Both the position numbers and the translations under genes were made by a program. Source: Elusimicrobium minutum Pei191 (GTDB lineage Bacteria; Elusimicrobiota; Elusimicrobia; Elusimicrobiales; Elusimicrobiaceae). Taken from it: DNA of 64,000 nt. The notes under the pieces are model-generated. The model saw nothing but the letters and a program-made list of their open reading frames with translations, ran no database searches and was not told the origin of the DNA. Location: contig NC_010644.1 in NCBI RefSeq assembly GCF_000020145.1, positions 1-64,000 of the forward strand, in the 5' to 3' direction. Positions 10,947 through 55,202 of the stretch are shown here, one piece after another (within the stretch, counting starts at the first letter, position 1; each line of letters opens with the position of its first letter).

Positions 10947-10960
10947 ATAAAATTAAATAA

Positions 10961-11031
10961 GGTGCGGGCGGGAATCGAACCCGCGAATAGCAGTTTTGCA
11001 GACTGCCGCCTTACCACTTGGCCACCGCACC
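10961..11031 (-). tRNA. tRNA-Cys (anticodon GCA)
   Basis: The 71-nt minus-strand sequence folds as a complete cloverleaf. The 7-bp acceptor is GGTGCGG/CCGCACC, the anticodon arm is GCAGT-CTGCAAA-ACTGC with GCA in the loop, and the T-arm is GCGGG-TTCGATT-CCCGC. The CCA end is not encoded. It has its own promoter and terminator. Confidence 0.97.
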
Positions 11032-14556: not shown

Positions 14557-14715
14557 ATGCAAAAATACGTATGCAATGTTTGTGGTTATATTTATGATCC
14601 TGCCGCGGGCGATCCGGACAGCGGGATTACCGCCGGCACACCTTGGGAGCAAGTTCCTGCGGATTGGGTTTGCCCGGCTTGCGGAGTAGGTAAAGACCAG
14701 TTTTCACCTATGTAA
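14557..14715 (+). CDS. rub: Rubredoxin
   Basis: This 52-residue electron carrier is missed by length-limited gene finders. Two Cys-x2-Cys-G knuckles, [12 protein letters not shown] and [10 protein letters not shown], bind one iron. The aromatic residues and the [14 protein letters not shown] loop are typical. ATG 14557 is preceded by GGGGAGAG. It closes the oxidative-stress cluster and is followed at once by a strong terminator. Confidence 0.97.
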
Positions 14716-14716
14716 T

Positions 14717-14748
14717 AAAAAAGGCCGCTTTTTAAAGCGGCCTTTTTT
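14717..14748 (+). terminator. Terminator after rubredoxin
   Basis: AAAAAAGGCCGCTTT and AAAGCGGCCTTTTTT form a near-continuous palindrome ending in six T residues. Confidence 0.92.
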
Positions 14749-14752
14749 ATTA

Positions 14753-14890
14753 GAGTACGCAACACCCCCTGCGTAAGCCGGGGAATGGATAGTTTTCTAA
14801 TTTCACAACACCTCCGCGGCAGCAAGGCGGAGGTGTTGTTTATTGTTAAATGAAACTGCAAAGTAAAGCTTTAGAACAGAAGAAACCCCG
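14753..14890. repeat. Dispersed repeat, copy 1
   Basis: About 138 bp match a second copy at 30029-30170 in the same orientation. I count 9 differences in the first 65 columns. It contains a perfect 13-bp stem (14805-14817 with 14827-14839) with loop GGCAGCAAG. The second half (TGTTTATT through the run before AACCCCGG) is less conserved. Both copies begin just after the T-run of a rightward terminator and lie downstream of a leftward gene (here the pilin). The nature is unknown: MITE-like element, small RNA or mini-gene. Confidence 0.8.
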
Positions 14891-14922
14891 GGCGGTGGGA
14901 CATTTGTGTTTTATTAAAAAAC

Positions 14923-29111: not shown

Positions 29112-29666
29112 ATGATAACCAGAGAGGAAGCGCTTGCTTTACTTAAAGAGCATATAAAAAGCGATGCTATGATAAAACACAGCTTAGCATCCGAAGCTAT
29201 TATGAGGGCCGCGGCAAAAGAACTTGGAGAGGAGGAGGAAAAATGGGGTATCGCGGGGTTGCTGCACGATATTGACGTTGAACTTACCGGTGGCGATCAT
29301 ATGCGCCACGCTTTTGAATCCCGCCCGATTTTACAAGGCAAAGTAGATGACGATGTTATTGACGCTATTGAAATGCATAACGCCGAAGTTAAAAATTTAA
29401 CTAGAGAAAAAAAGCTTGACATAGCTTTGACCGCATGCGAAACCATAAGCGGTTTTATAACCGCCATAGCTCTTATTTATCCGGACAAAAAAGTAGCCTC
29501 CGTTAAAGTTAAATCAATAACAAAACGCATGAAAGAAAACCGTTTCGCGGCCGGCGTTAGCAGGGAAAAAATTTTGGAATGTGAAAAAATAGGCATTCCT
29601 TTTGAACGCTTTGCCGAGATGTCTTTAAAAGCCATGCAAGACGCGGCCCCGTCTCTTGGTCTTTAG
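29112..29666 (+). CDS. HD-domain (HDIG) phosphohydrolase-like protein
   Basis: This 184-residue protein has the metal-binding HD layout: a first histidine in AMIKHSLASEA, then HD in AGLLHDIDVELT, a later H in DHMRHAFES and an acidic DAIEMHNAE helix. Members hydrolyse phosphate esters such as nucleotides, but the substrate is unknown. ATG 29112 follows AAGGAG. It stands alone on the plus strand before a 538-base gene-free stretch. Confidence 0.82.
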   Translation: MITREEALALLKEHIKSDAMIKHSLASEAIMRAAAKELGEEEEKWGIAGLLHDIDVELTGGDHMRHAFESRPILQGKVDDDVIDAIEMHNAEVKNLTREKKLDIALTACETISGFITAIALIYPDKKVASVKVKSITKRMKENRFAAGVSREKILECEKIGIPFERFAEMSLKAMQDAAPSLGL

Positions 29667-29700
29667 GCGGCGGACGTCCTAAATGGGACCTTTTTGGGAC

Positions 29701-29728
29701 TTGCTTATAAGCTTTAACGCGTTATACT
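29701..29728 (+). promoter_or_regulatory. Promoter of the candidate structured RNA
   Basis: TTGCTT (29701-29706) and TATACT (29723-29728) are separated by 16 bp, predicting a start near 29735, just before the first helix. Confidence 0.55.
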
Positions 29729-29734
29729 TTAATC

Positions 29735-30024
29735 ATGGAGGCAAACGAAAAAGAGGAAAATATTCTCTTTATCACGAGCCGTTTGGCTTGAGCCTCCTAA
29801 GTTTTAGGCCTGAAGGCGGTAAGTTTACCGCTCAAAGGCGGCGGTTAGAGGGACTATAATAAAATGGGTTTATAGTACCTTGGCGGTTTGGAATAAGAAA
29901 AGCGTGTAGAGGGCACGCATTAAAGATTCGGGGAGCGGAGAAGCAGTTACTTCTCCGCTCTCTTCATTTGGGTCTGTTTGAAAATTTTGCGGGAAAAACC
30001 CCTCTGAAAAGAAGGGCTTTTTTT
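29735..30024 (+). ncRNA. Candidate structured non-coding RNA, family not recognised
   Basis: This gene-free stretch contains a chain of hairpins. One is a nested stem (GGAGGC 29737-29742 with GCCTCC 29792-29797, AAACG with CGTTT, AAAGAG 29750-29755 with CTCTTT 29765-29770). The others are CCTAA/TTAGG 29796-29808, GCGGTAA/TTACCGC 29816-29831, ACTATAA/TTATAGT 29853-29876, GCGTG/CACGC 29902-29918, and an 11-bp stem 29933-29943 with 29950-29960. A promoter precedes it and a T-run (30018-30024) ends it, after a weak stem. I checked by eye for tmRNA, RNase P, SRP and 6S signatures and found none. An 18-codon ORF starts at ATG 29735 without a ribosome site. Confidence 0.55.
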
Positions 30025-30028
30025 GTGA

Positions 30029-30170
30029 GAGAGCGCAGCACCCCCTGCGTAAACCGGGGGATGGATAGTATCCTGATTTCACAACACCCCCGCCTTGCTG
30101 CTGCGGAGACGTGGCTGTTTATTATTGGGTAAAACCGCAATGTGAAGTTTTGAAACAAAAAACACCCCGG
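30029..30170. repeat. Dispersed repeat, copy 2
   Basis: This is the second copy of the element at 14753-14890. Its hairpin left arm (30081-30093) matches copy 1, but the 9-nt loop here is CTTGCTGCT, nearly the reverse complement of the copy-1 loop. The right arm (from 30103) is degraded. It begins five bases after the T-run of the RNA candidate and runs into the alaS terminator. Confidence 0.8.
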
Positions 30171-30190
30171 ACTAACGCCCGGGGTGTTTT
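30159..30190 (-). terminator. Terminator of alaS
   Basis: A 12-bp stem AAAACACCCCGG with CCGGGGTGTTTT (loop 8 nt) lies just past the alaS stop. On the minus strand it is followed by a T-rich tract. Confidence 0.88.
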
Positions 30191-30204
30191 ATAGACGGGT
30201 TCTA

Positions 30205-32811
30205 TTAAAGCAATTCTTTTATTGTTTTTAAAAACTCATTCCAATCCGTTACTTTACAGCCGCCTTGGGCAAAATCAGCCTTGCCGCCGGCACTGCCTTC
30301 CATTTTGCCCGCCAAACCTTTGGCGAGCGTGCAGGCGTCGGTGTTGCTGCCCTCGGCCTTTTTTACCACAAATGAACGCCTGTCCCCGTTATCTACGGCT
30401 ATAACGATTACTGCGTCTTTATGTTTTTGGCTTAAGCTGTCGGCCAGCGTTCTTAATTCTTTGGGGTTGGCGCCCTCTGCTTTCATGGAAATAATTTTCT
30501 TCCCGTTTAAAACGTCTTCTTTTACCTGGGTTCCGCCGGATCCCCCGGTTAAAAGTTTTTGCCTTAAAGAGGCTATTTCTTTTTTAGCGGCTTTTAAATC
30601 TTCCAGTACGGAATTGACTCTGGCGGGCACTTCTTTTAAAGAAGTTTCAAGCGTTTTTGCCATGGCGCTTAAAGCATGCGTATTTTCTTTTAAATAGTCT
30701 ATCGCTGCGATGCCGGCAACGCCTTCTATACGCCTTACCCCGGCGGAAAGGGCGCCTTCTTTAATAAGTATTACAGTAATAATTTCCGAGGTATTGTTAA
30801 CGTGTGTTCCGCCGCAAAGCTCTAAACTGTATTTTAAGGAAGGCTCGTTAAAGTTAGCTCCTACCATAACAAATCTGGCAGGGTCGGCATATTGTTCGCC
30901 CACAAGGGTAACCGCACCTAATTTTTTAGCGTCCTCTAATGGGCGTATTTCACAGTTAACGGGATGCGCGCGTATAACGGCGTTGTTTGCCATTTCAAAC
31001 ACTCTGGCAAGCTGTTCAGAGGTAGGCGCGTGCGGTGCAGTGTAGTCAAACCTGAAAACATCGGCCGATACAAAAGAACCCGCCTGATGCACGCTTTCGC
31101 CTATTACCTGGCGCAGCGCCTCATTAATTAAGTGCACGGCAGTATGGTTAGCAGCTGTTTTTTTGCGGTTAACCGGGTCAATTTTTACTTCAATTTCAGA
31201 GCCTTCTTTTAAAACGCCCGAAACTTCAACAGCGTGCAAAATGATGTTTGATAAAGGTTTTTCCGCGGTTGAAACCAGGGCTTGCCCGTCTTTCCAGGAA
31301 AAGGCCCCTCTGTCTCCCATCTGTCCGCCGCCCGTGGCGTAAAAAGGCGTTTTATCAAGCACGGCGTAGCCCGGGCCGGAAAGTTCTTTTACCTGCTCAA
31401 ATTTATCATTTAAAACAATAAGGACTTTTGATTTGGTTTGTATTTGTTCGTACCCTACAAAAGTGTTTTTAAGACTGTTTTCTATTTTTTGTAAAACAAC
31501 AAGCTTTTCTTTGCTAAACTCATCCGCGTAGGAACGACTTTTTTCGCGTGCCTCTTTTTTTGCTTTTTCAAAAGATTCTTCATCTAAAGCAAGTCCTTTT
31601 GCCAAGGCTATTTCTTTAGTTAATTCAACGGGAAAACCGAAGGTTTCGTACAGATAAAAAGCGTTTTCGCCGCTTATAGTTTTTTTGCTTTTTTTAATAA
31701 TGTCCTCAAGTCTTTCTTCACCGTTTTCAAGTGTTTTAAAAAAGGCCTCTTCTTCCGTTTTTATAACTGAGGAAATATAGTTTTTATTATTTCTGATTTC
31801 AGGGTAAATTTCGCCAAAATGCAAATCAATTACGCTTACAAGCAGGTGTAAAAAAGGGCCTTTAACGCCGGCTAATTTGCCGTATCTTAAAGCGCGGCGT
31901 ATTAAGCGGCGTAAAATATACCCGCGGCCTTCGTTAGAAGGTAAAATACCTTCCGATATTAAAAAGACTGAGCTTCTTATATGATCTGACACTATTCTTA
32001 AAGTGGATATTTCCTCTTTTATTTTCCCTTCAATTTTCAATAATTTTTTTGCTTCGTTAATTGTAGGGGTAAAAAGGTCCGTTTCAAAAGGGCTTTGTAC
32101 ATTTTGCATGGCCATTACAAGGCGTTCAAGCCCCATGCCGGTATCAATGTTTTTTTGCGAAAGGGGCACTATGGAACCGTCGTCTTTTCTGTCAAATTGG
32201 GTAAAAACAATGTTCCAAATCTCAACAAACCGGCCGCAGTCGCACTCGATGTTGCAGTTTTTGTTTTTGCAGCCTTTATCGCCAAAATCATAATAAATTT
32301 CAGAACACGGGCCGCAGGGACCCGTGGGGCCCATTGTCCAAAAATTATCCTTTTCGCCCAGTTCAAAAATTTTTTCTTTAGGAAGGTGTTTAAGCCAGAA
32401 ATTATATGCTTCGTTATCGCGCTCGGCAATGCCGCCTTTATAAATGCTTACATAAAGTTTTTCCGCCGGTATTTGCAGCGTTTGTGTTAAATATTCCCAA
32501 GCCCAGTTTATGGCTTGTTCTTTAAAATAATCACCGAAAGAAAAATTGCCCAGCATTTCAAAAAACGTAAGATGGCGGTTTGTAAAACCAACGCTGTCAA
32601 TATCTGTTGTGCGCACGCATTTTTGGCAGGTAACGGCACGGTGAAGGCTTTTATCCAAGCCTAAAAAATTAGCTTTAAACTGAACCATTCCGGCTGAGGT
32701 AAAAAGTAAAGTCGGGTCCGCCTGGGGAATAAGGGAGCTTGAAGCTACAACCGTACAACCTTTTGACTTAAAAAAATTTAAAAATGAAGCGCGTATTTCT
32801 TTGCTGTCCAT
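30205..32811 (-). CDS. alaS: Alanyl-tRNA synthetase
   Basis: The enzyme charges tRNA-Ala and edits mischarged serine or glycine. The class II core occupies the N-terminus (EIRASFLNFFKSKGC, TLLFTSAGMVQFK, FEMLGNFSFGDYFKEQAI). The editing domain has the zinc-binding H-x3-H in ANHTAVHLINEALRQ and the partner C-x3-H in ELCGGTHV. The C-Ala domain follows at the end. At 868 residues it is full length. An AGAGGA site precedes ATG 32811, and TGCTATACT upstream on the minus strand is a likely extended -10 promoter shared by the divergent region. Confidence 0.98.
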   Translation of the reverse strand: MDSKEIRASFLNFFKSKGCTVVASSSLIPQADPTLLFTSAGMVQFKANFLGLDKSLHRAVTCQKCVRTTDIDSVGFTNRHLTFFEMLGNFSFGDYFKEQAINWAWEYLTQTLQIPAEKLYVSIYKGGIAERDNEAYNFWLKHLPKEKIFELGEKDNFWTMGPTGPCGPCSEIYYDFGDKGCKNKNCNIECDCGRFVEIWNIVFTQFDRKDDGSIVPLSQKNIDTGMGLERLVMAMQNVQSPFETDLFTPTINEAKKLLKIEGKIKEEISTLRIVSDHIRSSVFLISEGILPSNEGRGYILRRLIRRALRYGKLAGVKGPFLHLLVSVIDLHFGEIYPEIRNNKNYISSVIKTEEEAFFKTLENGEERLEDIIKKSKKTISGENAFYLYETFGFPVELTKEIALAKGLALDEESFEKAKKEAREKSRSYADEFSKEKLVVLQKIENSLKNTFVGYEQIQTKSKVLIVLNDKFEQVKELSGPGYAVLDKTPFYATGGGQMGDRGAFSWKDGQALVSTAEKPLSNIILHAVEVSGVLKEGSEIEVKIDPVNRKKTAANHTAVHLINEALRQVIGESVHQAGSFVSADVFRFDYTAPHAPTSEQLARVFEMANNAVIRAHPVNCEIRPLEDAKKLGAVTLVGEQYADPARFVMVGANFNEPSLKYSLELCGGTHVNNTSEIITVILIKEGALSAGVRRIEGVAGIAAIDYLKENTHALSAMAKTLETSLKEVPARVNSVLEDLKAAKKEIASLRQKLLTGGSGGTQVKEDVLNGKKIISMKAEGANPKELRTLADSLSQKHKDAVIVIAVDNGDRRSFVVKKAEGSNTDACTLAKGLAGKMEGSAGGKADFAQGGCKVTDWNEFLKTIKELL

Positions 32812-53989: not shown

Positions 53990-55202
53990 GGACATTTATT
54001 ACAAAACGCCGCCGCAGCGGTTTCTTTTTAACTACGGGCAGGAAGAAATGCATCAGCATATTCTTTGCACCGGTTTGGGCGAAAAAAATATTTATGACAG
54101 CGTAAGCCAATGTAATAAATGCGCTTATTGCAGCAGGGTGTGCCCGTTTCAGCTGACCCAAAACAGGGAAGACCGCGGCCCACGAGCAAGGAATCTTTTA
54201 GCCCGCTATATAATGGAAGGCAAAATAAGTTTAAAACAGAACACAAAAGAATTGAAAGAAGTTTGCCTTACCTGTATGCTTTGCGGTTCCTGCACGCGCG
54301 AATGTTTCGCTAAAGTTCCCACGCATGACCATGTGCTGGAACTTGAAAGAGCTTTGGGCCGGCGCGAATTGTCTTTTAGCGTAAGATTTAAAAAAGCGTT
54401 TGGCAAATTAACGCCGTTTTCTCTTAAAAGAAAAATCAAAAAAAGCGCTTTAACGCCGCTTACAGGGCCGGACCAAGTACTGTTTGTGCCTTCCTATGAA
54501 GCTAAATACAAAGAAACTAAAAGCGGTTTTAACGCATTTAAAAATTTAAATGATATTTTTGGCAAAATAGCGGTTTTTTATAAGGAATGCGGTATGTATA
54601 ATTATGTTTACGGGCCATTGCCGCAAGCAAGGAAAGAAGCCGAAGCCTTGATTGGTTTTTATTTTGATAAAAAAATGGAAGGCAAAAAAATTGTTACCGA
54701 CTCTTTGGAGCTTTATAATTTTTTTAAAAAATACCCGCAGTTATTTAAATTAACGCCTTTGGAAGAAAAAGCCAAGAAGTTTGCCCTAAATGTTTTTTAC
54801 CTGGCGGATGTTTTGCCCGCGCAAAAACCAACAGCTTTAAAATCCCAAGATAAAGTTTTGCTTACAAAAACAAGCGTATTTTCAGCTGAGAAAGAGCTTT
54901 TTAAAACGAGTGAAGATATGCTTAAAAATATATACGGGGCCAACTATTTGCCCGGGTGGCAAGGCGAGGCTTATCCCTTGGCTCTGCTTGGTTACGGGCA
55001 TATAAAACCCAAAGAAAATAAGATTTTTTTGGAAAACAAAATAAAGTTTATAGCTTCCGCCCAGGCTGATATTTTGGTGTGTCCCAGCTTGGAACAGAAA
55101 ATTATTCTTAACAAGCATGTAAAAAAATATTATGCTAAGGTTAAGGTCGTTTATATTGGAGATTTATATGGCGGCAAAACTTACGGCGGAAGAGCAGCTT
55201 AA
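53982..55202 (+). CDS. Fe-S electron-transfer subunit, GlcF-like
   Basis: This 406-residue protein has two [4Fe-4S] ferredoxin motifs: C44, C47, C50 and C54 (CNKCAYCSRVCPF) and C98, C101, C104, C108 (CMLCGSCTRECF), with an extra C95. It lacks the two CCG cysteine motifs that normal GlcF carries in its C-terminal half, which suggests a diverged or reduced electron path. It overlaps the GlcD-GlcE gene by 8 bases. The start is ATG 53982, because AAGGAAC lies just upstream. Confidence 0.87.
   Translation: MNRDIYYKTPPQRFLFNYGQEEMHQHILCTGLGEKNIYDSVSQCNKCAYCSRVCPFQLTQNREDRGPRARNLLARYIMEGKISLKQNTKELKEVCLTCMLCGSCTRECFAKVPTHDHVLELERALGRRELSFSVRFKKAFGKLTPFSLKRKIKKSALTPLTGPDQVLFVPSYEAKYKETKSGFNAFKNLNDIFGKIAVFYKECGMYNYVYGPLPQARKEAEALIGFYFDKKMEGKKIVTDSLELYNFFKKYPQLFKLTPLEEKAKKFALNVFYLADVLPAQKPTALKSQDKVLLTKTSVFSAEKELFKTSEDMLKNIYGANYLPGWQGEAYPLALLGYGHIKPKENKIFLENKIKFIASAQADILVCPSLEQKIILNKHVKKYYAKVKVVYIGDLYGGKTYGGRAA

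What the first reader, a model, noticed from the sequence alone, without database searches (positions are those of the whole stretch)
29701..30024. Unassigned hairpin-rich RNA with its own promoter
A 290-nt stretch between two convergent genes has a promoter (TTGCTT, 16 bp, TATACT), at least six stems of 5 to 11 bp, a nested multi-part helix at the 5' end and a T-run at the end. I see no sign of tmRNA, RNase P, SRP or 6S RNA motifs. It may be a new structured RNA family.
Basis: partly seen in the sequence, partly recalled or inferred. Interest (0 to 1): 0.65.

Follow-up and report, generated by a model that had tools for sequence, protein, structure and literature searches.

The report
Orphan hairpin-rich RNA candidate, unproven
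A gut bacterium carries a 290-base stretch that would fold into an unusually stable chain of hairpins ending in a stop signal for transcription, but nothing related was found in any relative, so it is a plausible one-species RNA and not yet a new RNA family; right beside it lies a different, repeated element present about 35 times in the same genome.

Summary
The hairpins, convergent genes and terminal T-run are real. The stretch folds far better than shuffled sequence (z -5.7; 0 of 200 shuffles). It lies in the longest gene-free gap of the window (538 nt), which is also the most G+C-rich (0.47, against 0.22-0.36 for other gaps), a known hallmark of structured RNA. The proposed promoter is at chance level. 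Rfam finds nothing. No homolog was found by DNA in 341 genomes of the phylum, nor with a covariance model of its 5' half in 150. RNase P RNA, as control, is found in 57 of 60 relatives, including both congeners. In the congener where both neighbouring genes were found, they lie apart and the stretch is absent. So there is no covariation to test, and "new RNA family" is not established. Most likely this is a species-restricted transcript, either a stand-alone sRNA or a long 3' UTR, ending at an intrinsic terminator; its function can only be inferred. Following the region rightwards gave a firmer result: 30023-30193 is one of about 35 copies of a roughly 170-nt hairpin element. At least 30 sit directly after a locus-specific terminator, typically about 50 nt past a stop codon; ours is 357 nt past one, the only long gap left unexplained.

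The parts
29701..29728 (+). Proposed promoter TTGCTT-16-TATACT; no better than chance
   Evidence: 3/6 and 5/6 matches; such sites about 1 per 190 nt per strand. One search finds none with a stricter rule.
29735..30024 (+). Candidate structured RNA (about 290 nt)
   Evidence: z -5.68; longest and most GC-rich IGR of the window; no Rfam match; no homolog found.
29737..29797 (+). 5' domain: GGAGGC/GCCTCC closing helix with two inner hairpins (8 bp and 6 bp)
   Evidence: mean pair probability 0.96-1.0 for the three main helices.
29808..29839 (+). Hairpin 3, GCCT..GGCGGTA/TACCGCT..AGGC
   Evidence: inner 7 bp p 0.96, outer 4 bp p 0.61.
29841..29887 (+). Hairpin 4 around ACTATAA/TTATAGT
   Evidence: 7 bp p 0.93, with weaker outer helices.
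29902..29918 (+). Hairpin 5, GCGTGT/GCACGC
   Evidence: p 0.99.
29930..29963 (+). Hairpin 6, 14 bp stem
   Evidence: p 0.98.
29993..30024 (+). Intrinsic-terminator-like hairpin with T-run; also the terminator that the adjoining repeat copy follows
   Evidence: Similar terminators in relatives follow protein genes; at least 30 of 35 repeat copies follow such a terminator.
30023..30193 (+). Copy of a dispersed ~170-nt hairpin repeat, separate from the candidate RNA; it includes the alaS-side terminator
   Evidence: 34 copies at E<=1e-10 in this genome.
30159..30190 (-). Strong terminator of alaS (part of the repeat unit)
   Evidence: 14-pair stem followed by T-rich tail on the minus strand.

Best explanation
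The stretch 29735-30024 is probably a species-restricted, stable, hairpin-rich transcript (sRNA) read on the + strand and ended by the intrinsic terminator at 29993-30024. Shown: the sequence, the predicted fold, the terminator-like end, the unusual length and GC of the gap, and the absence of detectable relatives. Inferred: that it is transcribed at all, that it has its own 5' end near 29735, and how it acts. As mechanism I would bet on an Hfq-independent RNA whose hairpins protect it from decay, and which acts through its single-stranded links (29888-29901, 29964-29992) or the CCUCC segment at 29793-29797, complementary to ribosome-binding sites but paired in the predicted fold, by base-pairing with mRNAs. 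That last step is a guess.
For: Fold z -5.68, none of 200 shuffles as good. 4th of 201 fragments in the window; a tile overlapping the tRNA gene (-4.41) and one overlapping another repeat copy (-4.52) score similarly. The IGR is 538 nt with GC 0.47, other IGRs 0.22-0.36, window average 0.40; RNase P RNA and tRNA-Cys of this genome are 0.51 and 0.63. [quoted passage not shown] The neighbouring repeat marks the 3' ends of transcription units: its copies start a median 50 nt after the upstream stop codon, but 357 nt here. The other long gaps are explained by a tRNA gene (L155), a 52-aa rubredoxin-like ORF (window 14557-14715), or what looks by eye like a decayed inverted repeat copy (L139). So a non-coding gene or long 3' UTR is expected here.
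Against: No promoter better than chance. No homolog found, so no covariation. The minus strand folds as well. No Hfq gene found in this genome. No transcript data were available.
Confidence: 0.45

Rival explanations
1. It is the long structured 3' UTR of the HD-domain gene mRNA. The HD gene has no strong terminator of its own before 29993, so its transcript would run on to 30024; the hairpins would stabilise the mRNA end, or a 3'-derived fragment would be cut out.
For: The only terminator-like signal right after the HD stop (29676-29689) is a weak 5-pair stem. The promoter is at chance level. Most of the other repeat copies follow a gene and its own terminator.
Against: Upstream genes at other repeat copies end a median 50 nt before the element; a 330-nt UTR would be exceptional here.
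Confidence: 0.3
2. It is not a functional RNA: leftover or decayed DNA (for example a worn mobile element or pseudogene) that happens to hold inverted repeats.
For: Not found in either congener (one 66%, one 88% complete), and the gene order has been rearranged in the one where the neighbours could be placed. The adjoining DNA is a copy of a dispersed element. Both strands fold well.
Against: No second copy was found in the genome or in the stretches taken from it. It shows no long ORF and no match to phages or plasmids. Helices are mostly perfect, unlike decayed repeats.
Confidence: 0.22
3. It is an unrecognised divergent member of a housekeeping class (6S, RNase P, tmRNA, SRP) or a CRISPR tracrRNA.
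For: The 6S family is not found anywhere in this genome, so a divergent 6S is formally missing; a Cas9 gene exists elsewhere.
Against: RNase P RNA is at 559520-559864. No Rfam match even at E 10 points to these classes. ARAGORN finds no tmRNA here. The fold is a row of hairpins, not the single long rod of 6S. No stretch of 12 matches or complements the CRISPR repeat at 10 or more positions, and Cas9 is 231 kb away.
Confidence: 0.03

Closest known systems
Orphan bacterial small RNAs found by GC-rich intergenic-region screens (PMC11109978, PMC8723152)
   Same: Long, GC-rich intergenic region with stable hairpins and an intrinsic terminator, no Rfam match.
   Different: Those screens rank candidates by homologs and covariation; here no homolog was found.
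Structured 3' UTRs and 3'-derived sRNAs
   Same: Lies downstream of a co-directed gene and ends at a Rho-independent terminator.
   Different: Processing and continuity with the HD mRNA were not testable.
REP/REPIN and other palindromic dispersed repeats (PMC3116915, PMC12306157), for the adjoining element only
   Same: The right-hand neighbour 30023-30193 is a multi-copy extragenic hairpin element.
   Different: It is about 170 nt with several hairpins and sits directly after intrinsic terminators. The candidate RNA itself appears single-copy.

Membership tests
   No homolog by DNA in 341 phylum genomes (100 relatives) or with a covariance model of the 5' half in 150; control RNase P RNA found in 57 of 60. 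The 3'-half model (R2) was built but not searched.
Intrinsically terminated transcript (sRNA or 3' UTR) | GC-rich hairpin followed by T-run | tested here: met
   29993-30024; same kind of terminator in relatives.
Stand-alone sRNA gene | Own promoter and discrete 5' end | tested here: inconclusive
   Promoter-like site at chance frequency; no transcript data.
RNase P RNA | Match to RF00010 covariance model | tested here: not met
   The genome's copy is at 559520-559864, 222 bits.
6S RNA | Match to RF00013, long rod with central bubble | tested here: not met
   No match in this genome up to E 10; fold is a chain of hairpins. The 6S model also misses several control genomes.
tmRNA / tRNA | tRNA-like fold | tested here: not met
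   Searches find only tRNA-Cys at 10960-11031.
CRISPR tracrRNA | Anti-repeat complementary to CRISPR repeat | tested here: not met
   no 12-mer with 10 or more matches to the repeat or its complement.
Dispersed repeat / MITE / REP | Multiple copies in the genome | tested here: not met
   For 29735-29985: no second copy among the scored candidates, only its own hairpin (2 of 16 candidates scored, 7 of 35 scored). For the adjoining 30023-30193 the test is met.

The most novel reading that the evidence does not exclude
The stretch is the only known member of a new class of hairpin-rich bacterial RNA with a specific function, limited to one species or evolving too fast for sequence and single-sequence structure searches to see its relatives.
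Probability: 0.15. Interest if true: 0.5.

Novelty: new member of a known kind. Interest (0 to 1): 0.33.

Why it matters
If transcribed, it would be a small RNA in a poorly studied phylum, in a genome where no Hfq was found. It shows how a strong fold plus a GC-rich gap can mark a candidate that comparative methods cannot confirm. The adjoining repeat family, hairpin elements that sit just behind terminators, is the firmer result and raises a testable question about how such elements choose terminators as sites.

Tried and rejected
Rfam at gathering and E-value thresholds: only chance terminator-like matches. DNA search in relatives: matches only the terminator, which there follows protein genes. 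Phages, plasmids and viral contigs: nothing beyond 17-18 nt words. Synteny: in the congener the HD gene is followed directly by cysK, and alaS by another gene, so there is no orthologous gap to compare. Covariance model R1 of the 5' half: only chance scores outside the window. A leaderless 18-codon ORF (29735-29791) was considered; a stop-free run of that length is expected about 40% of the time (my estimate) and no ribosome-binding site precedes it.

Full report
Setting. The window is the first 64 kb of a single-contig genome of 1,643,562 bases. That size matches, from memory, Elusimicrobium minutum Pei191; a related record in the public collection is labelled Elusimicrobium sp.. The reported stretch lies between an HD-domain ORF (29112-29666, +) and alaS (30205-32811, -).

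Observation. The hairpins are real and more than chance: 29735-30024 folds to -106.4 kcal/mol, z -5.68 against dinucleotide shuffles, none of 200 as good. In a scan of 200 tiles of the window (20 shuffles each) it ranks 4th; mean tile z is -0.58, sd 1.47. The other strand folds equally far from chance, so the fold does not choose the strand; the T-run after the last hairpin does. Most helices have pair probabilities above 0.9. The gap is the longest and the most GC-rich of the window: 538 nt at 0.47, others 0.22-0.36 (the 1142-nt apparent gap at 53990 contains a 417-aa gene). Long GC-rich gaps are the selection rule of published searches for structured RNAs (PMC11109978, PMC8723152). The promoter, in contrast, is weak: 3/6 plus 5/6 matches, and comparable sites occur every 190 nt or so.

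Known families. Nothing in Rfam reaches its threshold in the gap, and the E-value list contains only terminator-like chance matches. RNase P RNA is elsewhere. 6S RNA is not found in the genome. There is no tmRNA here and no complementarity to the CRISPR repeat of the genome's Cas9 locus.

Relatives. A DNA search of 100 relatives matched only the terminator hairpin; in those genomes it follows protein genes. A search of 341 genomes of the phylum with 29735-29985 gave only matches of about 16-36 nt at chance level. A covariance model of the 5' half gave no match better than E 0.06 in 150 genomes. As a control, the same kind of DNA search with this genome's RNase P RNA found it in 57 of 60 relatives, at 79-80% identity in the two congeners. 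In congener G002 (88% complete) the HD gene is followed directly by cysK and alaS by a different gene; in G001 (66% complete) neither gene was found. So the stretch is absent from the corresponding places of at least one close relative, no covariation can be measured, and the claim of a new family has no support yet.

Outside the coordinates. The DNA directly to the right, 30023-30193, belongs to a dispersed repeat. A covariance model from eight copies finds 34 copies at E<=1e-10 in this genome, two of them in the window (30023-30193 and 14747-14915). The hairpins are supported: 86% of cells paired, 36 double changes against 17 in shuffles and 19-29 in slid controls (the alignment was fitted to the structure, which favours it). 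In at least 30 of 35 copies examined the element starts directly after a locus-specific intrinsic terminator; the upstream stop codon lies a median 50 nt away, and 24 of 35 lie between convergent genes (gene directions there come from the longest open frames, not from annotation). Some copies carry the tip of the central hairpin inverted (CCTTGCTGCTG versus CAGCAGCAAGG). In congeners only the terminator-like part scores.

What this says about the finding. The repeat copy marks the end of a transcription unit at 30024. Elsewhere the extra space before such a copy is explained by a tRNA gene (L155), a rubredoxin-like ORF (14557-14715), or what looks by eye like a second, decayed inverted copy (L139). 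Here 330 nt of hairpin-rich, GC-rich DNA remain with no ORF. A non-coding gene or an unusually long 3' UTR is therefore the natural reading. Between the two I lean slightly to a stand-alone RNA; the weak promoter keeps this open.

Mechanism. Shown: fold, terminator, context, restriction to this genome as far as searched. Inferred: transcription, 5' end, function. No Hfq gene was found, so an antisense RNA would have to work without it.

Verdict. A reasonable orphan RNA candidate of modest interest; not a demonstrated new family.

Noticed in passing
window 30023-30193 and 14747-14915; 32 further copies in the genome (loci L102-L108, L139-L163): About 170-nt dispersed hairpin element, 34 copies at E<=1e-10, at least 30 of 35 examined sitting directly after a locus-specific intrinsic terminator; consensus TTATGAGAGTACGG..CCCCTGCGTAAGCCGGGG..GATTTCACAACACCTCCGCC..GCGGAGGTGTTGCTGTTTGTTGTTGRGTGAAATC..CTTTGAAACAAAAGAAACCCCGGGCGTGAGCCCGGGGAGTTTYATT. 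Not found as a full element in the two congeners.
   Followed up: partly
L141, L144, L152, L153, L154, L160 and window 14747-14915: The tip of the central hairpin of the repeat is inverted in these copies (CAGCAGCAAGG instead of CCTTGCTGCTG), as if flipped between its palindromic arms.
   Followed up: partly
L110, L111, L113 (other genera of the family): The 3' module of the repeat (AAAAGAAACCCCGGG....CCCGGGGAGTTTCAT) recurs in other genera of the family with unrelated middle parts, suggesting a wider terminator-like repeat.
   Followed up: partly
L155 810-882: One repeat copy follows the terminator of a tRNA gene, showing that the element is not tied to protein genes.
   Followed up: no
genome position 261203-264661 (L095, L096): Cas9 gene with a CRISPR array starting about 1.5 kb downstream, repeat ATTCTATAAAATCAATTCTCGGAGGGCAACCCTAAC.
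   Followed up: no
whole genome G000: No Hfq (PF17209) and no 6S RNA (RF00013) were found by family search; the 6S model also misses several control genomes, so its absence is weak evidence.
   Followed up: partly
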